DNA of 22,214 nt. It comes from a virus. The stretch is taken from IMG/VR virus record IMGVR_UViG_3300048997_000485, positions 1-22,214 of that record; one strand, written 5' to 3'. Shown here piece by piece: positions 3,510-17,454 of this stretch. The notes under the pieces were generated by a model. It was given only the letters and a program-made list of their open reading frames with translations, was not told where the DNA came from and searched no databases. Made by a program: the position numbers and the translations under genes. The number at the start of each line of letters is the position of its first letter. Within the stretch, counting starts at the first letter, position 1.

Positions 3510-4671
3510 CAAATCCCTGATCGAGTGGACAGATGCGACGTGGAATCCGATCCGCGCGCGCAACCTGAAGACCGGCAAGGTCGGCTGGCATTGCGAGCAC
3601 GCCACGACGGGCTGCGAGTGGTGCTACGCGGAAGGCTTCAACAAGCGGCTCGGCACCGGGCTCCCGTTCAAGCCCGGGCACCGCAAGGAGATCGAGATAT
3701 TCCTCTGCGAGGAGATGCTGACGCAGCCGCTGCGCTGGAAGAAGCCGCGGATGATCTTCCCGGGATCCATGACCGACCTGTTCGCCGACTTCGTGCGTGA
3801 CGAATGGTTGGACAAGATTTTTGCGGTGATGGCGCTGACGCCGCAGCATACGTTCCAGGTGCTGACGAAACGCGCGGCGCGGATGCGCGCATACATGACG
3901 GCTGAGGAGCGTCGCTATCGAATCGAACTGCAGATGTACGAACTTGGCGGCGACTACGACGCGCGAACGATCCCGGATGCAGACTGGCCGCTCCCCAACG
4001 TCTGGCTTGGCGTCTCGACCGAACGCCAGCCGGAGGCCAATGAACGCATTCCGGAGCTGGTGCGCACGCCGGCGGCGGTGCGTTTCATCAGCTACGAGCC
4101 GGGGCTCGGGCCGCTCGACCTCGAGTGCATTGAAGCTCCGGAGAAGGTGGAAGGCGAGCGCTGGACGTTCAACTGTCTGCAGACCGGCGACACGTACGAA
4201 CAGCACGATGATCTCGGCCATAGAAGCTCTGGCGACGGGCCATATCGCGAACGTGCCATCGACTGGGTCATCGTTGGCGGCGAAAGCGGCCGCAACGCCC
4301 GGCCTATGCATCCGAACTGGGCCCGGGAGCTGCGGGCTCAATGCAGAGACGCCGGCATGCTCGATCGCTTCTTCTTCAAGCAATGGGGCCAATGGGCGCC
4401 GGTCTGCGCGCTGCATGATGCGGCGATCGACAAGCTCTACAAGCCCGCGCCGGCGCGCCATCCAGAGGCGACGAGGCAGTGCCTGGTGCCGCAGATGGTC
4501 ATGCATGCGGACGGGACTTGTTTCACGGATGTCACCGCGCCAATGGCCTTCGTCGTGGGATCCGGCGCGATGCAGATGTTTTCTGTCGGCAAGGGTATCG
4601 CCGGGCGCCAGCTCGACGGCGTCGAATACAACGGCATGCCGGCACGGCTTACGATCGGAGCAGCCGCATGA
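3502..4671 (+). CDS. Phage Gp37/Gp68-like protein (DUF5131), three-cysteine motif
   Basis: 389 aa; the start overlaps the methyltransferase end by 8 bases. The opening IEWTDATWNP, the cysteine cluster C31-X6-C38-X2-C41 followed by YAE, and the later blocks VLTKRA, WLGVSTE, GGESG..ARPM and FFFKQWG are the hallmarks of the Gp37/Gp68 family (DUF5131, PF07505). The cluster resembles, but is not identical to, the CX3CX2C site of radical SAM enzymes, so an iron-sulphur/radical role is plausible but unproven. The family is common next to phage methyltransferases and replication genes, as here. The partner protein TcmP, often adjacent in other genomes, is not seen. The C-terminal 50 residues carry another conserved-looking segment (GIAGRQLDGVEYNGMP) frequent in this family. 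Confidence 0.88.
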   Translation: MADKSLIEWTDATWNPIRARNLKTGKVGWHCEHATTGCEWCYAEGFNKRLGTGLPFKPGHRKEIEIFLCEEMLTQPLRWKKPRMIFPGSMTDLFADFVRDEWLDKIFAVMALTPQHTFQVLTKRAARMRAYMTAEERRYRIELQMYELGGDYDARTIPDADWPLPNVWLGVSTERQPEANERIPELVRTPAAVRFISYEPGLGPLDLECIEAPEKVEGERWTFNCLQTGDTYEQHDDLGHRSSGDGPYRERAIDWVIVGGESGRNARPMHPNWARELRAQCRDAGMLDRFFFKQWGQWAPVCALHDAAIDKLYKPAPARHPEATRQCLVPQMVMHADGTCFTDVTAPMAFVVGSGAMQMFSVGKGIAGRQLDGVEYNGMPARLTIGAAA

Positions 4672-10618: not shown

Positions 10619-10768
10619 ATGACGCTGAAGACCGGCTTTGCACTGCTGACCGGCCTGACGCTTGGGATGTGCCTCGCAGCCGAATTGCAGGCAAAAGCCT
10701 ATGCCCGCCAGTTTACGGCGCTGCATATCGCGACCTGCACCAAGGCCGACAAGGCCAGTGTCCGATAA
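10619..10768 (+). CDS. 49-residue protein with a membrane/signal segment, ending in a recombination-like site
   Basis: Starts at ATG 10619 with GGGAG about 12 bases upstream. Residues 1-25 are a Lys-containing start followed by a hydrophobic run (TGFALLTGLTLGMCLAAEL), suggesting a signal or membrane anchor. The rest is short and polar (TKADKASVR). The stop codon TAA is the last three bases of the left arm of the 28-bp site at 10758-10785. It could be a small membrane protein, or a gene cut short when the site inserted. No family recognised. Confidence 0.5.
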   Translation: MTLKTGFALLTGLTLGMCLAAELQAKAYARQFTALHIATCTKADKASVR

Positions 10769-10785
10769 GCGCCCTTATCGGACAC
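10758..10785. repeat. dif-like 28-bp palindromic site, left copy
   Basis: Arms GTGTCCGATAA (10758-10768) and TTATCGGACAC (10775-10785) are perfect reverse complements, separated by the 6-base centre GCGCCC. CAG follows. This 11-6-11 layout with inner ATAA and TTAT is the same as in XerCD dif sites. A second copy lies at 13663-13690. Convergent genes end on either side, so a bidirectional terminator is the main alternative, but there is no T-tract. Confidence 0.75.
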
Positions 10786-10795
10786 CAGACCCGGC

Positions 10796-11095
10796 TTAGG
10801 CAAAAAGCTGGCCACCAAACGGGTTGTCCCCTTTCACATCCCAGACCAGCGGTCGCCCATTTACCGCGTGATTTGAGAGGGGCTCGCCTTCAGCGTTCCA
10901 CGCACCGATGGCCTCACCTATTTCTGTAGACGTCGGAACCTCAGACCAGTTGACGTACAGAACGCCTTTGTGATCGTGCAAGCCCGCGATCGACTTTATA
11001 CCCTTGCTCTCAAGCGCGGAGCTGAGTTTTTTGAGCCTTTCTATCCGCGAAGGCTCCGTATCGGATCGATTTGCCGTGATACGAATTTCGGTCAT
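10796..11095 (-). CDS. Small protein, unknown function (leftward)
   Basis: 99 aa, ATG at 11095, with GAGG about 10-13 bases upstream on the minus strand. It is basic at the N-terminus (TEIRITANRSDTEPSRIERLKKL), helical, then has a mixed part with Trp (VLYVNWSEVPTSTEIGEAIGAWN, GRPLVWDVKGDNPFGG). No membrane segment. It is the second gene of a two-gene leftward unit and ends 10 bases inside the left dif-like site. No recognised family; cargo of the module. Confidence 0.62.
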   Translation of the reverse strand: MTEIRITANRSDTEPSRIERLKKLSSALESKGIKSIAGLHDHKGVLYVNWSEVPTSTEIGEAIGAWNAEGEPLSNHAVNGRPLVWDVKGDNPFGGQLFA

Positions 11096-11125
11096 TTTCG
11101 TCCGCCTCGCTACCGCAGATGCCGT

Positions 11126-11335
11126 TTAGGCCTCAGGATGATGCACCAGGACCGTGTCAGGCCGGCGCTCGCATTTTTCGAACGAACCATCTTCCAGCCC
11201 GGCTTGGATATAGACATCGAAGACCGTCGTGCGATCGTCTTCATACGTTTTTCCGGCCTCGATCCTGAACATGCAATATTCCAGGTCAATGCTCTTTGAC
11301 TGCTTTGCCAGCACGACGGTGTTTCGGCGCTTCAT
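11126..11335 (-). CDS. Small protein, unknown function (leftward)
   Basis: 69 aa, ATG at 11335, with AGGG further upstream on the minus strand than usual. It is a beta-rich, mixed-charge protein (YCMFRIEAGKTYEDDRTTVFDVYIQAGLEDG). It ends 31 bases before the next leftward gene, which probably shares its transcript. Its start is divergent from the recombinase, with only 32 bases between, so the two promoters must overlap and may be co-regulated. No recognised family. Confidence 0.6.
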   Translation of the reverse strand: MKRRNTVVLAKQSKSIDLEYCMFRIEAGKTYEDDRTTVFDVYIQAGLEDGSFEKCERRPDTVLVHHPEA

Positions 11336-11367
11336 GGTCTTGTCGCCCTTTTGGGTAGGCGCCCATC

Positions 11368-12300
11368 ATGTCAGAATCGCAAGCCCTAGTCGACCCGCGG
11401 GCATCGGTTCGGGCTTATCTCGAGGCGGAGAAAGCCGCCGGCACGCGGCGGGCCTATAAATCGGACTGGGCCGACTTTTGCACCTGGTGCGATACTGTAA
11501 ATGTTTACAGTATGCCGGCCGAACCGATGACGGTGGCCCGCTATCTGGCCCAGCTCGCCGACAGCGGCAAGAAGGCCGCGACAATCCAGCGCCGCGTGGC
11601 GTCGATCCGGGCCGCGCACCGGGCTGCGGGGCATGAGCCGCCCACCAACGCCGAGGGCGTCAAGGGCACGATGCGCGGGATCCGGCGCACGCTGGGCACC
11701 CGCAAGGTCAAGAAGGCGCCGGCGACGGCGGAGATCATCATGAGCCTGCAGGCGGTGTTTCCGGACACGCTTGCAGGCAAGCGCGACCGGGCGATCGTGC
11801 TGCTGGGCTTTGCCGCGGCGCTGCGCCGTTCCGAGCTGGTCGCGCTGGACGTCGCCGATGTCGAATGGCGGCGCAAAGGCATCCTGCTGCACAAGCGGCG
11901 GTCCAAGACCGACCAGGAGGGCAAGGGCGCGACGATTCCGATACCTCGCGGCGAGGCGCTGAAGCCGGTCGACGCGCTCGATGCCTGGCTGAAGGCTTCC
12001 GGGATCTGCGAAGGGGCCCTCTTCCGCGCCGTGCACAGATCCGGCGCGCTGCTGAACAAAAGGCTTTCAGATCGCGACGTCGCGCGCATCGTCAAACGTT
12101 CCGTGGCGGCCGCCGGCATCGACGCGAAGGTTTTCTCAGGACACTCGCTGCGCGCCGGCTTCGTCACCTCGGCGCTCGATGCCGGCGAAGACCCGATGAA
12201 GATCATGCCGATCACCGGCCACAAGAAGGTCGACACGCTGCAGGAATACGACCGGCGCGAGAACGATTTCGACAGTCATGCGGGCAAGGGATTTCTCTAA
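11368..12300 (+). CDS. Tyrosine recombinase (phage integrase/XerC-like family)
   Basis: 310 aa. A SAM-like core-binding N-terminal domain (about 15-110, with TRRAYKSDWADFCTWC and ATIQRRVASIRAAHRAAG) is followed by the catalytic domain. Active-site residues are visible: R153 in LRRSEL, K in the KTDQEGKGA turn, H259-X2-R262 in SGHSLRAGF, H285 in ITGHKK and nucleophile Y294 in EYDRR. The protein ends with DSHAGKGFL. It cuts and rejoins two DNA sites through a phosphotyrosine link. The dif-like sites on both sides of the module are obvious candidate substrates. The next gene starts at TAATG, so it leads an operon. Its place between replication and packaging genes is unusual for a prophage integrase. 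A role as the phage integrase or in dimer resolution remains possible. Confidence 0.93.
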   Translation: MSESQALVDPRASVRAYLEAEKAAGTRRAYKSDWADFCTWCDTVNVYSMPAEPMTVARYLAQLADSGKKAATIQRRVASIRAAHRAAGHEPPTNAEGVKGTMRGIRRTLGTRKVKKAPATAEIIMSLQAVFPDTLAGKRDRAIVLLGFAAALRRSELVALDVADVEWRRKGILLHKRRSKTDQEGKGATIPIPRGEALKPVDALDAWLKASGICEGALFRAVHRSGALLNKRLSDRDVARIVKRSVAAAGIDAKVFSGHSLRAGFVTSALDAGEDPMKIMPITGHKKVDTLQEYDRRENDFDSHAGKGFL

Positions 12301-12518
12301 TGTGCGTTTTGACTGCTTTGAGCTGGGAAGGTGAGTTGCCGCTGCCGGGCCACTACGTGAAAGCCCGCAGAGGCCGTATCGCATTTCTAATTCTCGAAGT
12401 TCTCCGGCCCAACAAACCAAACGCCAAGTATGCAGCGCGGCTCCAATGTGCACGTATGAACCCTTCTTACCTTCATCGTGACGCCGTAGTTCATCCTTGG
12501 CATTGGGCGAGACGATGA
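12300..12518 (+). CDS. Small basic protein, unknown function
   Basis: 72 aa, ATG overlapping the recombinase stop (TAATG). Residues about 18-72: YVKARRGRIAFLILEVLRP, AARLQCARMNP, AVVHPWHWARR. The pattern of a (K/R)(R)GR-AFLI-EV core and an ending with VHPW.W resembles a small family I have seen in rhizobial prophages as 'hypothetical'. It is basic and beta-rich, maybe nucleic-acid binding. It overlaps the next gene by ATGA. It belongs to the recombinase operon. Confidence 0.7.
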   Translation: MCVLTALSWEGELPLPGHYVKARRGRIAFLILEVLRPNKPNAKYAARLQCARMNPSYLHRDAVVHPWHWARR

Positions 12519-12733
12519 AGCGATTGCTCTGCAGGATATTCGGCCATCGTCGGCAGTCGAGCAATTGGTACCGCCTCCCGCCATTTATCTCCCGCCTTTA
12601 CAGTGGCACCCGTTGGTTGAGCAACACTCGGTGCGCTCGCTGTGGCAAGCGGTTGGAGGTGCATCGCGTTCACCGCAGCCGCAGACCTTCGGCTTCCGAT
12701 GTCCGAAGCCACGCCGGCGGGCGCTTTTTGTAG
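12515..12733 (+). CDS. Small cysteine-containing protein with shared C-terminal tail
   Basis: 72 aa, ATGA-coupled. The N-terminus MKRLLCRIFGHRR with a later TRCARCGKRL gives a Cys-His-Cys-X2-Cys pattern that may bind zinc. Small phage proteins of this type (K-R-L-C-x-I-x-G-H opening) are known but uncharacterised. The C-terminus RSHAGGRFL is nearly the same as that of the gene at 12993-13361 and like that of the recombinase. The similarity extends past the stop codon. Function unknown. Confidence 0.68.
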   Translation: MKRLLCRIFGHRRQSSNWYRLPPFISRLYSGTRWLSNTRCARCGKRLEVHRVHRSRRPSASDVRSHAGGRFL

Positions 12734-12739
12734 GGGTAC
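12709..12739 (+). repeat. Cassette-end repeat, first copy
   Basis: CCACGCCGGCGG (12709-12720), four variable bases, TTTTTGTAG (12725-12733, with the stop codon), then GGGGTAC. It matches 13337-13368 at 12 and 9 consecutive bases plus most of the following seven. It includes the palindrome CGCCGGCG. It lies at the end of a gene that is otherwise unrelated to the second one. Confidence 0.6.
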
Positions 12740-12744
12740 ATTGA

Positions 12745-12993
12745 ATGTCCGAGGTTAACAGCACGTCCGACGCTCGCGTCCTGAACAACACGGTTCGTCA
12801 TCAATACCGTGTTCTCAGCGACAGCGAGAAGGCGCTCATGTTGAGCATCAAGGATGCCGGCCAGGGGTTCTTGGAGCTGCTCGAGGCCGTAGCTGCGCAA
12901 ACCCGAGGTTTTGGGGGAAGCCGCGAACTGTCGATCGCCAAGACGAAGATCGAAGAAGCCGTCATGTGGGCGGTGAAGCACGTCACGAGCTAA
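12745..12993 (+). CDS. acb2: Acb2/Tad1-type hairpin protein (cyclic-nucleotide sponge, anti-CBASS)
   Basis: 82 aa. Polar N-terminus, then VRHQYRVLSDSEKALMLSIKDAG, a helix, GFLELLEAV, a loop, and SRELSIAKTKIEEAVMWAVKHVT. This is the Acb2/Tad1 hairpin domain pattern. Known members (Acb2 of Pseudomonas phages, Tad1) form hexamers that bind and sequester cyclic dinucleotides/trinucleotides made by CBASS, or the signal of Thoeris. Y21 and K36 have the same spacing (15) as the ligand residues Y11 and K26 that I recall for PaMx33 Acb2. Start: ATG 12745, 11 bases after the previous stop, with GGGG nearby. It is followed by a zinc-ribbon gene at TAATG. Family call strong; the bound ligand is not predictable from this. 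Confidence 0.85.
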   Translation: MSEVNSTSDARVLNNTVRHQYRVLSDSEKALMLSIKDAGQGFLELLEAVAAQTRGFGGSRELSIAKTKIEEAVMWAVKHVTS

Positions 12994-13361
12994 TGGCCGA
13001 TCTTTCCAAGGCCCTGGTCTACAATCCGTTCGAGGGGGACTTCGGCGACCAAGGCGATCGCGAGTTGCGCGACAAGATCGTCAAGTTCCGCAAGGCCGGC
13101 GGTTGTCACCTGTGCGGCAACGATGTGAAGCCCGGGACATTGGGCCGAAGCCTGACAATGCTTTGGGCAACGGACGGTGTGATGACCTACCGGTATTGTA
13201 CCGAGTGCACGGAAGCGCAGGCGAGCAGCTGGACTGATGACGGTAGAGCTCTTGATGTGCGATACGCGGAGAGGTCGCGGTCTACCGCCCGGCGCGCTCG
13301 TTCTGGTGTCCGGAATACGACCGGGGCGTTCGACACCCACGCCGGCGGAAAGTTTTTGTAG
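12993..13361 (+). CDS. Zinc-ribbon protein translated with acb2
   Basis: 122 aa, ATG overlapping the acb2 stop (TAATG). MADLSKALVYNPFEGDFGD opens the protein, then HLCGNDVKPG (C-X2-C type start: CHLC) and YRYCTECTEA (C-X2-C) form a four-cysteine zinc ribbon around residues 37-72, then SSWTDDG. This layout occurs as a small conserved phage protein often located near Acb2-like genes. The last 30 residues are a basic, Arg/Ser-rich extension ending FDTHAGGKFL, a tail shared with two other genes of the module. It may be a partner of Acb2 or an independent anti-host factor; unknown. Confidence 0.78.
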   Translation: MADLSKALVYNPFEGDFGDQGDRELRDKIVKFRKAGGCHLCGNDVKPGTLGRSLTMLWATDGVMTYRYCTECTEAQASSWTDDGRALDVRYAERSRSTARRARSGVRNTTGAFDTHAGGKFL

Positions 13362-13368
13362 AGGCTAC
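13337..13368 (+). repeat. Cassette-end repeat, second copy
   Basis: CCACGCCGGCGG (13337-13348), AAAG, TTTTTGTAG (13353-13361), then AGGCTAC. It overlaps the stop codons of two convergent genes; GTAG and CTAC form an inverted pair over three bases. Matches the copy at 12709-12739. Confidence 0.6.
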
Positions 13369-13622
13369 TGATCGACGTCGTCAAAGATCGAACGATTACC
13401 GTGTTCATCGACCATCATTCCCTCAGGCGTGAATTTGGGCCGCCCGTTAGGATGAAGCACTTCTGCGGTAAGCGCCGCCCTGATTTCCGTTCGATAGAGG
13501 GGTTGCGCCAAATGGCTTCTTACCAGCTCAGCGATCGCGGCAGGCTCGAGCCCCGGCGTTTCGGACAGACTGTCCACGTATTCTTGTAGATATAGGCGAC
13601 ACTGGTCGTATCGAGTCATCAC
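13365..13622 (-). CDS. Small protein, unknown function (leftward)
   Basis: 85 aa, ATG at 13622 with CCGGAG about 9 bases upstream on the minus strand. Mostly helical and acidic: RYDQCRLYLQEYVDSLS, PAAIAELVRSHLAQPL, TEIRAALTAEVLHP, then a polar C-terminus (GNRSIFDDVDQ). It converges on the zinc-ribbon gene with only 3 bases between stops. The rightward open frame overlapping it (13401-13589) is rejected. Function unknown. Confidence 0.66.
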   Translation of the reverse strand: MMTRYDQCRLYLQEYVDSLSETPGLEPAAIAELVRSHLAQPLYRTEIRAALTAEVLHPNGRPKFTPEGMMVDEHGNRSIFDDVDQ

Positions 13623-13662
13623 GGCGCTCCGGCCGACATCCTAGCACAAAAGTTCAGCCCTG

Positions 13663-13690
13663 GTGTCCGATAACCGCCGTTAACGGACAC
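13663..13690. repeat. dif-like 28-bp palindromic site, right copy
   Basis: Arms GTGTCCGATAA (13663-13673) and TTAACGGACAC (13680-13690) with the 6-base centre CCGCCG. The left arm is identical to that of 10758-10785; the right arm has one change (T to A). CCTG/CAGG extend the palindrome to 13659-13694. The stop codon of the leftward gene that starts at 13886 lies in the right arm. Confidence 0.75.
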
Positions 13691-13886
13691 CAGGATTTAC
13701 TCGCGCTTCTTCATGCATGGGACGAAACTGGCCATCATTGTTCTCGTCCTCGAACAACTCACCCGCTTTGATCGGTTCGGCCGCAACTCCGACATAACCT
13801 TTTTGAGCGGCAAGATAGAACTTACCGTCGTCCCCACGGTAAACGGCCTGGCCAACCTCGATCTTTTCGCCCGCGATACCCTTCAT
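13680..13886 (-). CDS. Small phage protein, capsid-fibre/cement-like composition, unknown function
   Basis: 68 aa from ATG 13886 with GGGAG 9-14 bases upstream on the minus strand; a GTG at 13910 is the alternative start. The body, GEKIEVGQAVYRGDDGKFYLAAQ-GYVGVAAEPIKAGELFEDENNDGQF, reads like a short beta domain seen in phage capsid decoration or DUF2190-type proteins ('G..V..GQAVY...DGK...A'). The last codons (A-R-V-N-P-G-V-R) and stop are inside the palindromic site, so the tail may have been replaced by site insertion. Function unproven. Confidence 0.6.
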   Translation of the reverse strand: MKGIAGEKIEVGQAVYRGDDGKFYLAAQKGYVGVAAEPIKAGELFEDENNDGQFRPMHEEARVNPGVR

Positions 13887-13987
13887 GCCGCTGTCTCCCA
13901 AGCCGTACACGAAGGGATTGCACCTCCGAATCGACCGTGATTCTCTCTGCCTGCAGGTGATTTGCCTGCTCTAGCAGAGGAGCCAGC

Positions 13988-14739: not shown

Positions 14740-15108
14740 CCCCGGCGCGCGCGGGTCCTCCCCAGCCGCAAAGCAAAACCGGTGGCTGCGCCCCAATTTT
14801 TCCCTAGCGCTGGGGGTCCGATCTGATGCAACGGGCCCCGGATGCAACGCCTGGCGAGCTGATCAGCATCGGCGAAGCCGCCCGCCAAGTCGGCATCAAC
14901 AAGTCGACGCTGAGCCGGCAGGTCAAAAGCGGCGCGGTGCGGTCCCATAAAGGAAAAGTGGTGCTTTCGGAGGTCCTGGCGGACCGCGCCAGCAACATCG
15001 ACCTGACCCAGTCGCGGCGCCGGCCGGCGGGCAAATCGAAGCGGCCCGATGCAACGGCTTCCAAGGCTGATGCAACGGGCGCCGGCGGCGCTGCTCCGGA
15101 TGCAACGG
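14740..15108. other. Candidate cos/packaging initiation region
   Basis: A GC-rich near-palindrome, CCCCGGCGCGCGCGGG (14740-14755), resembles a cos cut site. It is followed by the AT stretch CCCCAATTTTTCCC, a possible IHF-like bend, and then five copies of GATGCAACG at 14825, 14841, 15048, 15069 and 15099, four of them followed by G. In lambda the cut site, an IHF site and small-terminase binding repeats lie in the same order before and in Nu1. The copy at 14825 is not in the reading frame of the others, favouring selection on DNA. Confidence 0.5.
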
Positions 15109-15443
15109 ACGATGACGACCTGGTGCTGATCGACGGCAAAATGGTGTCGTTCGCCCAGGCGCAGCGCATCAAGGAAAACTACCTGGCCCGACAGCGGGCG
15201 CTCGACTTCGAGAGGGACGCCGGTCGCCTCGTCGATCGACAGGCCGCCGAAAAGGCCTTCTTCGAAACCGCCCGCCAGATCCGCGACGCCTGGCTCAGCT
15301 GGCCGGCCAGGGTCGCAACCCTGATGGCGTCGGATCTCGGGATCGAGGAGCGAAAGCTGGTCGAGGTCCTCACCGATTATGTCCGGCAGCACCTCACCGA
15401 GCTCGGCGAACCCGCTGCTCCCGATATCCCTCGGCCGAACTGA
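14826..15443 (+). CDS. Terminase small subunit (lambda Nu1-like)
   Basis: 205 aa. The N-terminal winged helix, GELISIGEAARQVGINKSTLSRQVKSGAVRSHKGKVVLSEV (about 11-50), is the DNA-recognition domain as in lambda Nu1. A linker rich in Ala/Asp/Thr (about 62-98) comes next, containing repeated D-A-T from GATGCAACG boxes. The C-terminal helical region (A-ERDAGRLVDRQAAEKAFFETARQIRDAWLSWPARVATLMASDL) mediates assembly with the large subunit. It recognises phage DNA and recruits the large subunit for cutting and packaging. The large subunit gene starts 65 bases before the end of this one. ATG 14826 lies inside the first repeat box. Confidence 0.88.
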   Translation: MQRAPDATPGELISIGEAARQVGINKSTLSRQVKSGAVRSHKGKVVLSEVLADRASNIDLTQSRRRPAGKSKRPDATASKADATGAGGAAPDATDDDDLVLIDGKMVSFAQAQRIKENYLARQRALDFERDAGRLVDRQAAEKAFFETARQIRDAWLSWPARVATLMASDLGIEERKLVEVLTDYVRQHLTELGEPAAPDIPRPN

Positions 15444-17454
15444 GGACCTAACCGCATCATGGCGGGCCGGAATTCGCCCGCCGCCCAAAATGACGGTGGT
15501 CGATTGGGCCGAAGCGAACCGCAAGCTTTCGAAGGAATCGTCTAACGGCGGCCGCTTCATCGTCTCCCGCGTCGAGGTTTCCCGCGGACCGATGCTGTGG
15601 GCAACCGAACCGGGCGTGCAGACCATCACGCTGCAGGCCTGCACTCAGCTGCTCAAGACGACGTTCATTGAAAATATCGCTGGCTATTTCATTCACCTGG
15701 ACCCGTGTCCGATCCTGGTGGTGCAGCCGAAAGACGACGCGGCCGAGACGTTTTCGAAAGACCGGCTAACGCCGATGATCCGCGACACCCCGGTGTTGCG
15801 CGATCTGTTCCGCGGCCAGTCGCGCGATGCCGGCAACACGCTCACCCACAAGCAATTCCCGGGCGGGCACATCACTATTGTCGGCGCCAACAGCCCGACC
15901 AACCTCGCGATGCGGCCGATCCGCATCTCGCTATGCGACGAAATCGACAAGTATCCGCTGTCGGCCGGCAATGAAGGTCCCCCGGTCGACCTGGCCGAAG
16001 AACGCCAGGCGGAATTCTCGGCCAACAAACTTGCGGTGCGAGCCTGCTCGCCGACGATCGAAGGGCGCAGCGCGATCGCGGCGTCCTATCTGGAAAGCGA
16101 TCAGCGCAAGGCTTTCGTTGTTTGTCCTCATTGCCAGCACGAGCAGACGCTAGAATGGGAGCAGGTCCGTTTCGAGAAAGACGTGCGCGATCGCATCCGG
16201 CCCGAGACGGCGGGATATGTCTGCATCAGCTGCGGCGTGGTTTGGTCCGAAGCGGAGCGGCTGCGCTCGCTCGATAAAATAATCTGGCGCCAGACGCGCG
16301 AATTCGATTGCTGCGGCAAGCACCAGAAGCCCGAGCGCTGGATCTGCGAGCCGCTGGCTCCCGGCGTCGAATACGCCGTCTGTTCCGAATGCGGAAAGCG
16401 GACGGTGCCAAATGACCACGCTGGCGGCGTCGCCTCGAAACTTTACGCTCCGCGCCAGAGTATCCGCGAGCTCGTGAAGAAATATCGGCGCGCGCTCGAG
16501 CGCGGGATCGAAGCGTTGAAAACTTTCTACAACACCCAGCTCGCCAGGACCTGGAAGGAGGCCGGCGAAGCACCCGAATGGGACCGCGTATTCGGCCGCC
16601 GCGGCGGTTACCGATCGGGGACGGTGCCCACAGGCGCGTTGATCCTGTTCGGTGGCGTCGACGTCCAGAAGGACCGGCTCGAAGCCGGCATTTGGGGCTT
16701 TGGCCGAAACCGCTGGCGGTGGCTGATCGAGCACCGGGTATTGCCCGGGCAGACCAACCGGCCGGAAGTCTGGGACGAGCTCGCTAAACTGTTCGCCGAG
16801 ACCTGGCGCCACGAGAGCGGCGCCGAAATGTCGGTCCGGGACTGGGGCGTCGATTCCGGCGCGTTCGCGGCTGAGGTTGGCGCGTTCGTTCGCAGCCAGC
16901 AAGGCCGCGGCAATGTTCACGCGATCGATGGCTTCGACAACTCTTTGGCCGCCTATCTCGGCGTCGGCGCGCTCGATGTCACGGTCGCTGGTCGAAAACT
17001 TCGTCGTGGTCTGAAGACCATCAAGATCGGCGTTTCGTTCTGCAAGCAAGAATTGATGGGGCAGCTTGCGCTCGATCGACCGGAACAAGGCAACGCAACG
17101 CCCCCCGGTTTCGTGCACTTGCCGGAAGACGTCAGCGAAGACCAGGTCAAGCAGCTGACATCGGAAGAACTTATCACCAACGTCGTCCGCGGCCGCACGC
17201 GGCGCTCCTGGAATTTGATCGCCGGCCGACGCAACGAGGTCCTCGACACTGCGAACTATGCCCGCGCCCTGGCGGCAATGCGGGGTTGGGACCGGTGGCG
17301 CACTTCTAAGTTTCTCCAGATCGAGGAGCTGCTCGGCATTCCCGCCGGCGGCGATCCGCCTGCAGGGCCAGCGCCGACGTCGACGGCTGCGCCCGCTTCT
17401 TCGCGACAACCCCTCGTTCGCCGCAGTTCGCGATCGAATTTCATGGATGGATGA
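15379..17454 (+). CDS. Terminase large subunit, GpA family
   Basis: 691 aa. Start ATG 15379 overlaps the small subunit by 65 bases; a non-ATG start closer to the MTVVDWAEANRKLS segment is possible. The ATPase has a deviant Walker A, TQLLKTT at 89-95 (K93), where other GpA proteins show VGKTE-like sequences. Walker B is LCDEID with D187/E188. The zinc finger CPHCQHEQTLEW/CISCG is followed by a second Cys-rich insertion (CCGKHQKPERWIC...CSECGKRT, about residues 309-350). The nuclease has FGGVDVQKDRLEAGIWG and WGVDSGAFAAEV. It cuts concatemers at cos and drives DNA into the procapsid. Length is typical of the family. Confidence 0.95.
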   Translation: MSGSTSPSSANPLLPISLGRTEDLTASWRAGIRPPPKMTVVDWAEANRKLSKESSNGGRFIVSRVEVSRGPMLWATEPGVQTITLQACTQLLKTTFIENIAGYFIHLDPCPILVVQPKDDAAETFSKDRLTPMIRDTPVLRDLFRGQSRDAGNTLTHKQFPGGHITIVGANSPTNLAMRPIRISLCDEIDKYPLSAGNEGPPVDLAEERQAEFSANKLAVRACSPTIEGRSAIAASYLESDQRKAFVVCPHCQHEQTLEWEQVRFEKDVRDRIRPETAGYVCISCGVVWSEAERLRSLDKIIWRQTREFDCCGKHQKPERWICEPLAPGVEYAVCSECGKRTVPNDHAGGVASKLYAPRQSIRELVKKYRRALERGIEALKTFYNTQLARTWKEAGEAPEWDRVFGRRGGYRSGTVPTGALILFGGVDVQKDRLEAGIWGFGRNRWRWLIEHRVLPGQTNRPEVWDELAKLFAETWRHESGAEMSVRDWGVDSGAFAAEVGAFVRSQQGRGNVHAIDGFDNSLAAYLGVGALDVTVAGRKLRRGLKTIKIGVSFCKQELMGQLALDRPEQGNATPPGFVHLPEDVSEDQVKQLTSEELITNVVRGRTRRSWNLIAGRRNEVLDTANYARALAAMRGWDRWRTSKFLQIEELLGIPAGGDPPAGPAPTSTAAPASSRQPLVRRSSRSNFMDG

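What the first reader, a model, noticed from the sequence alone, without database searches (positions are those of the whole stretch)
10758..13690. Pair of dif-like 28-bp sites bracketing a recombinase and anti-defence cargo
Both sites have 11-base arms (GTGTCCGATAA and its complement) around a 6-base centre, exactly the 11-6-11 plan of XerCD dif, with the same inner TAA/TTA. The left arms are identical and the right arms differ by one base, while the centres differ (GCGCCC and CCGCCG). A tyrosine recombinase lies between them. This fits a mobile module comparable to pdif modules, but here carried by a phage and holding its own recombinase and an anti-CBASS gene. A transcription terminator or operator function is the main alternative.
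Basis: partly seen in the sequence, partly recalled or inferred. Interest (0 to 1): 0.85.

Follow-up and report, generated by a model that had tools for sequence, protein, structure and literature searches.

The report
Cre/lox-like recombinase and sites in phage
The two palindromes are 34-base docking sites for a Cre-like DNA-recombining enzyme encoded between them; relatives on phages and small plasmids usually carry just one such site beside the same enzyme, so this looks like a genome-monomerising (Cre/lox-type) system rather than a mobile two-site module.

Summary
In detail: both 28-bp sites exist as described; none is expected by chance. Each is the core of a 34-bp, loxP-sized unit (14-6-14, i.e. 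13-8-13) that is a conservation island between otherwise unrelated phages. The recombinase between them (11368-12300) is Cre-type: its profile and AlphaFold model both match Cre/loxP structures best, and R-K-H-R-H-Y is intact. In 46 loci of its family a cognate site lies within 700 bp upstream (19) or 1.5 kb downstream (8); control windows gave 0/840 and 0/720. Plasmid relatives sit mostly beside parA or toxin-antitoxin genes. Four related prophages are integrated in tRNA genes with unrelated att repeats and hold the Cre-like gene internally, so the sites are not att. Most phages carry one site whose spacer varies between phages, which fits self-by-self recombination (monomerisation). A pdif-like module is not supported: the window's spacers differ at 2 of 6 bases, no empty site was found, and the enzyme is neither XerC nor XerD. 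The pair probably reflects two generations of recombinase unit: a fossil recombinase 3' end lies 300 bp before site 2. A terminator is unlikely (no U tract). Function is inferred; nothing was tested at the bench.

The parts
10755..10788 (.). Site 1: 34-bp lox-like site, upstream class, spacer GCGCCC (28-bp core 10758-10785)
11368..12300 (+). Cre-type tyrosine recombinase, 310 aa; R153, K180, H259, R262, H285, Y294 invariant in the family
13660..13693 (.). Site 2: 34-bp lox-like site, downstream class, spacer CCGCCG (28-bp core 13663-13690)
13312..13361 (+). Fossil of a recombinase gene 3' end, closest to that of L016
12745..12993 (+). Acb2/Tad1-hairpin protein (probable anti-CBASS), cargo
12993..13361 (+). 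Cargo ORF with Cys pairs (phrog_19515, unknown function); its 3' end overlaps the recombinase fossil
13365..13622 (-). Small cargo ORF; its C-terminal part has a relative in the same gap (recombinase to site) of L020
10796..11095 (-). Small ORF of unknown function between site 1 and recombinase
11126..11335 (-). Small ORF of unknown function between site 1 and recombinase

Best explanation
The window phage carries a phage-encoded, single-recombinase, Cre/lox-like system. The recombinase binds the two inverted arms of a 34-bp site and exchanges strands across a 6-bp spacer between two copies of the same site. Such copies meet when phage DNA is present as a circular dimer or a tandem prophage; the outcome is a monomer that the separate tRNA-directed integrase can insert and that segregates cleanly. 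The window has two sites of different spacer class because two generations of recombinase-site unit have probably been laid over each other: site 2 is the resident downstream site, site 1 belongs to the upstream-site lineage. The Acb2 and other small genes are accessory cargo in the variable gap between recombinase and site 2. Shown: Cre-type enzyme, intact catalytic residues, 34-bp unit, genetic linkage of site and enzyme, internal position in tRNA-integrated relatives, plasmid-stability context of relatives, fossil recombinase end. Inferred: binding, strand exchange, the biological role, and the order of events in the window.
For: Cre is the best hit by sequence (9e-13), by profile (7e-34 against XerD 1.6e-24) and by fold (top 33 matches are Cre or Tre). 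Site linked to the gene in 25 of 46 family loci, 0 of 1560 control windows. 34-bp conservation island. lox and rox also lie just upstream of cre and dre. Plasmid relatives beside parA or toxin-antitoxin genes, several with the same type of site 24-230 bp upstream. Four relatives integrated in tRNA genes with 31-56 bp att repeats and the Cre-like gene internal; separate integrase confirmed in two. One site per genome in six genomes or records; spacer varies from phage to phage. Fossil recombinase end 300 bp before site 2.
Against: No activity has been shown. The window itself has two sites, as do L017 and G369. About half of the family loci have no recognised site with this motif, and L149 keeps the recombinase without one. 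Integrated prophages have less need of dimer resolution than plasmids. The lambda-type terminase means circularisation by cohesive ends would be available anyway.
Confidence: 0.7

Rival explanations
1. Mobile module: the 2.9-kb segment with recombinase and Acb2 gene is a site-bracketed unit that the recombinase inserts and excises (pdif-like), or that phages swap between two sites of different spacer.
For: Two tandem units with up-site, recombinase, Acb2-like gene and down-site in G369:C2; identical up-sites 2755 bp apart. L017 and L019 share the left flank at 92-95%, the recombinase only at 77%, unrelated cargo, and homology that resumes exactly at the first base of the down-site.
Against: Most relatives have one site and keep the recombinase. 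The window spacers differ at 2 of 6 bases. No empty-site partner found. Homology starting at the site is expected anyway if the site alone is conserved next to a variable gap. The up-site is absent from L019.
Confidence: 0.13
2. Operator: the palindromes are protein-binding sites that regulate the recombinase or neighbouring genes, with no strand exchange.
For: The upstream class lies 24-610 bp before the gene, where an operator would be.
Against: The downstream class lies 260-1360 bp behind the gene; 14-6-14 geometry and Cre-type enzyme; the palindrome is 34 bp, long for an operator.
Confidence: 0.07
3. Host XerC/XerD act on the sites as on dif or pdif.
For: 11-6-11 core, inner TAA/TTA; host genomes encode both XerC and XerD.
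Against: Published Bradyrhizobium japonicum dif is GATTCGCATAAGGTATATTATGGAATAT (PMC2731167), with different outer arms. The sites accompany the Cre-like gene and are otherwise nearly absent from host genomes (8 of 392 genomes).
Confidence: 0.04
4. Intrinsic transcription terminator between gene blocks.
For: Strong hairpin (-18 to -23 kcal/mol) between gene ends; ORFs end at the TAA inside the site.
Against: No U tract on either strand; the common form carries an A-A or T-T mismatch in the stem; primary sequence is conserved between unrelated flanks; no Rfam match.
Confidence: 0.03

Closest known systems
Cre/loxP of phage P1 and Dre/rox of phage D6
   Same: Single Cre-type tyrosine recombinase, 34-bp-scale inverted-repeat site with a short spacer close to the gene, carried by a phage
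   Different: About 25% identity to Cre; His instead of Trp at Cre position 315; arms unrelated; phages integrate in tRNA genes instead of living as plasmids; site may lie downstream; window has two sites of different spacer
Cre-like recombinases of rhizobial and other low-copy plasmids (e.g. beside repABC and toxin-antitoxin genes in pSmeLPU88b, PMC10194956)
   Same: Cre-like enzyme in a plasmid-maintenance context; this family's plasmid members stand mostly beside parA or toxin-antitoxin genes
   Different: Here on integrated phages; cognate sites are predicted here; identity to the pSmeLPU88b protein was not tested
XerCD/dif and pdif modules of Acinetobacter plasmids
   Same: 28-bp core, 11-6-11, inner TAA/TTA
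   Different: Own Cre-type recombinase; different outer arms; usually one site per replicon; 34-bp unit
XerS/difSL, XerH/difH single-recombinase systems
   Same: One recombinase genetically linked to its site
   Different: Chromosomal dimer resolution; weaker sequence and fold similarity

Membership tests
Cre-type (single-recombinase, lox-like) systems | Tyrosine recombinase with intact R-K-H-R-H/W-Y | tested here: met
Cre-type (single-recombinase, lox-like) systems | Nearest solved structures are Cre | tested here: met
Cre-type (single-recombinase, lox-like) systems | Falls inside the Cre/Dre clade | tested here: not met
   Sister-like position outside the 99-supported Cre/Dre clade, on the Cre side of the branch to host XerC/XerD; so it is Cre-like, not a Cre orthologue
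Cre-type (single-recombinase, lox-like) systems | 34-bp inverted-repeat site with 6-8 bp spacer near the gene | tested here: met
Cre-type (single-recombinase, lox-like) systems | Recombines two copies of the site without accessory factors | not testable with these tools
   needs bench assay
pdif module | Sites match host dif arms and are used by host XerC/XerD | tested here: not met
   arms differ from B. japonicum dif; own Cre-type enzyme. Use by host Xer was not tested
pdif module | Segment bounded by paired sites, with empty-site partners | tested here: not met
   single site in most relatives; no empty partner found, in a limited set
Phage attachment site (attP/attL/attR) | Site lies at prophage ends | tested here: not met
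   A. massiliensis and G349 prophages: site internal, tRNA repeats at the ends
Intrinsic terminator | Hairpin followed by a U tract | tested here: not met

The most novel reading that the evidence does not exclude
The recombinase and two lox-like sites of different spacer form a natural recombinase-mediated cassette-exchange system: phages sharing the site pair swap the recombinase-plus-anti-defence cassette as a unit, the arrangement that genome engineers build with heterospecific lox sites.
Probability: 0.1. Interest if true: 0.85.

Novelty: new variant of a known kind. Interest (0 to 1): 0.5.

Why it matters
It predicts both enzyme and cognate site for a Cre-type family spread over alphaproteobacterial phages and plasmids, with a relative on a Firmicutes plasmid: directly testable, and a possible source of orthogonal recombinases for genome engineering. 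It raises the question why phages that integrate in tRNA genes with another integrase also keep a Cre/lox-like system, and offers natural sites of different spacer in one genome next to anti-defence cargo.

Tried and rejected
Attachment-site reading (rejected by tRNA-bounded prophages). Terminator (no U tract). Host dif. Integron-like cassettes, suggested by ORFs ending at the TAA inside the site with ...VR*: two of three frames stop inside the site by sequence alone and several of the ORFs look spurious, so this was dropped. A pac/lox link as in P1: the window terminase is lambda-type (GpA), so adjacency to the terminase genes is no evidence of headful circularisation. Nostoc, Prevotella, Bacteroidaceae, Terriglobia and Bacilli pattern hits were judged from their flanks to be chance or terminal palindromes and not studied further. 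A search for relatives by the window's putative small-terminase gene gave only one contig fragment. A second candidate fossil at 12709-12733 is not significant.

Full report
OBSERVATION. The record is a 22,214-base viral contig. Site 1 is a perfect 11-6-11 palindrome; site 2 has one arm GTGTCCGATAA and the other GTGTCCGTTAA. Searches of public genomes for the arm pair give very few hits: two Afipia loci, a few unrelated palindromes, four viral contigs. All four viral contigs and both Afipia loci hold a relative of the recombinase close by.

THE UNIT IS 34 bp. When phages are compared pairwise, the matching stretch around each site mostly begins and ends exactly at CTGG...CCAG, 34 bp, with unrelated DNA on both sides. 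This is loxP size (14-6-14, or 13-8-13). The common form is asymmetric (GATAA on one side, GTTAA on the other), which would break a pair in an RNA stem; there is no U tract on either strand.

THE ENZYME. A sequence search of solved structures puts Cre first (9e-13) and XerD next (8e-10); a profile of 22 relatives gives Cre 7e-34, XerD 1.6e-24. The AlphaFold model (pLDDT 89) matches 33 Cre or Tre chains before any other protein. Catalytic R, K, H, R, H, Y are conserved. In a tree the phage and plasmid relatives lie on the Cre side of a branch (SH-aLRT 94) that separates them from host XerC/XerD, but outside the Cre/Dre clade. Many branches are weakly supported and the root is arbitrary.

SITE AND ENZYME GO TOGETHER. 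Across 46 loci of the family, a site with TCCGATAA core and dyad symmetry lies within 700 bp upstream of the gene in 19 and within 1.5 kb downstream in 8; of 840 and 720 control windows of the same lengths from the same DNA, none has one. The outer arm bases change between lineages but mostly keep dyad symmetry (for example ACTTCCGATAA/TTCTCGGAAGT, GCTTCCGATAA/TTCCCGGAAGC). The upstream class recurs on plasmids of Methylobacterium radiotolerans, M. indicum and Aureimonas, and an Alicyclobacillus plasmid has TGATGTCCGATAA-7-TTATCGGACATCA 0.9 kb upstream. In P1 and D6 the lox and rox sites also lie just upstream of the recombinase gene. Most of the plasmid relatives looked at stand next to ParA or toxin-antitoxin genes.

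NOT AN ATTACHMENT SITE. In the Afipia massiliensis chromosome the related prophage is bounded by a 31-bp repeat of the tRNA-Pro 3' end (117329, 159767), with a tyrosine-integrase gene at one end; the site at 148175 is internal and the only one in that genome. Two more prophages sit in tRNA-Asp (55- and 56-bp repeats) and one in tRNA-Arg (51 bp); each has the Cre-like gene inside. The two tRNA-Asp prophages share an att-adjacent protein of about 450 aa that no family model recognises, so I do not count it as a proven integrase. The tRNA-Arg prophage (G410) has a confirmed integrase at its end; its Cre-like relative is only 48% identical and has no recognised site.

WHY SELF BY SELF. The 6-bp spacer varies from phage to phage (downstream class CCGCCG, CCGCCC, CAGCTC, CCCTGC, CATCAC; upstream class GCGCCC, GCGCCA, GCGTCA, CAGTCG and others). 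A phage-to-host attachment site would be held to the host sequence, whereas a site that recombines with its own copy is free to drift. Six related genomes or records hold one strict-pattern site each (L017 has a second, weaker one). From the known role of Cre (keeping P1 monomeric, abstract of PMC2409434) the likely product is a monomer. This step is inference.

WHY TWO SITES IN THE WINDOW. Two classes exist, upstream and downstream. Most phages keep one; the window, L017 and G369 have both. In the window a fossil of a recombinase 3' end lies at 13312-13361 (alignment score 62 against a shuffled maximum of 41; closest to L016), about 300 bp before site 2, much like the 257 bp between the live L016 recombinase and its site. 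The ORF at 13365-13622 has a partial relative in the same gap in L020. So a resident arrangement recombinase - small gene - site 2 was probably overlaid by the present recombinase with its cargo, and site 1 belongs to the upstream class.

IS IT A MODULE? For: G369:C2 holds two tandem units, each with upstream site, recombinase (damaged) and Acb2-like gene, followed by a downstream site that is intact in the first and degenerate in the second; the identical upstream sites are 2755 bp apart. L017 and L019 share the left flank at 92-95%, the recombinase at 77%, unrelated cargo, and homology that resumes exactly at the downstream site. Against: most relatives have one site; the spacers in the window differ at 2 of 6; no empty site was found; L149 keeps a recombinase with no recognised site and L153 a site with only a recombinase remnant. 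The Acb2 gene is absent from nearly all the other relatives, so it is not a fixed part of the unit. I give the module reading 13%, of which a true two-site cassette exchange is most (10%).

LIMITS. No activity is shown. Many loci are viral contigs that may be fragments. The tree used a quick method. The paper library holds open papers only; a 2023 survey of Cre-type recombinases that I remember could not be consulted, so priority of the site prediction is not assured. The search protocol of PMC4957104 (lox-like site of 13-8-13 near a Cre-like gene) is in effect what was done here.

Noticed in passing
window 12270-12300, 12709-12733, 13312-13361: Three reading frames in a row (recombinase and two cargo ORFs) end in ...HAG[GK][GRK]FL*, the family's own C-terminus; one copy is a significant fossil, the other is not.
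   Followed up: partly
L069 303-1661 (G349) and G367:C1:3371897-3373258: Att-adjacent protein of about 450 aa shared by two tRNA-Asp prophages (55% identical) that Pfam and PHROGs do not recognise; possibly a divergent integrase.
   Followed up: partly
L070 (G404:C56) 1459-1492 and about 4014-4047: Two sites of this type in a bacterial contig with no recombinase relative within the 12 kb read; possible relics.
   Followed up: partly
L068 (G369:C2:12001-30678): Two tandem damaged units of site, recombinase and Acb2-like gene in what looks like chromosomal, non-phage surroundings.
   Followed up: partly
window 14826-17454 compared with L012 1946-4073: The same recombinase-site unit sits next to unrelated packaging genes: lambda-type GpA terminase in the window, Terminase_6N type in Afipia.
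   Followed up: partly
window 10620-10766 and 13674-13910; L016, L019, L069, L150, L153: Several ORFs run into a site and stop at its TAA (...GVR* or ...SVR*).
   Followed up: partly
L004, L006, L011: Nostocales contigs end in perfect palindromes containing GTGTCCGTTAA-TTTAAA-TTAACGGACAC; probably assembly hairpins.
   Followed up: no
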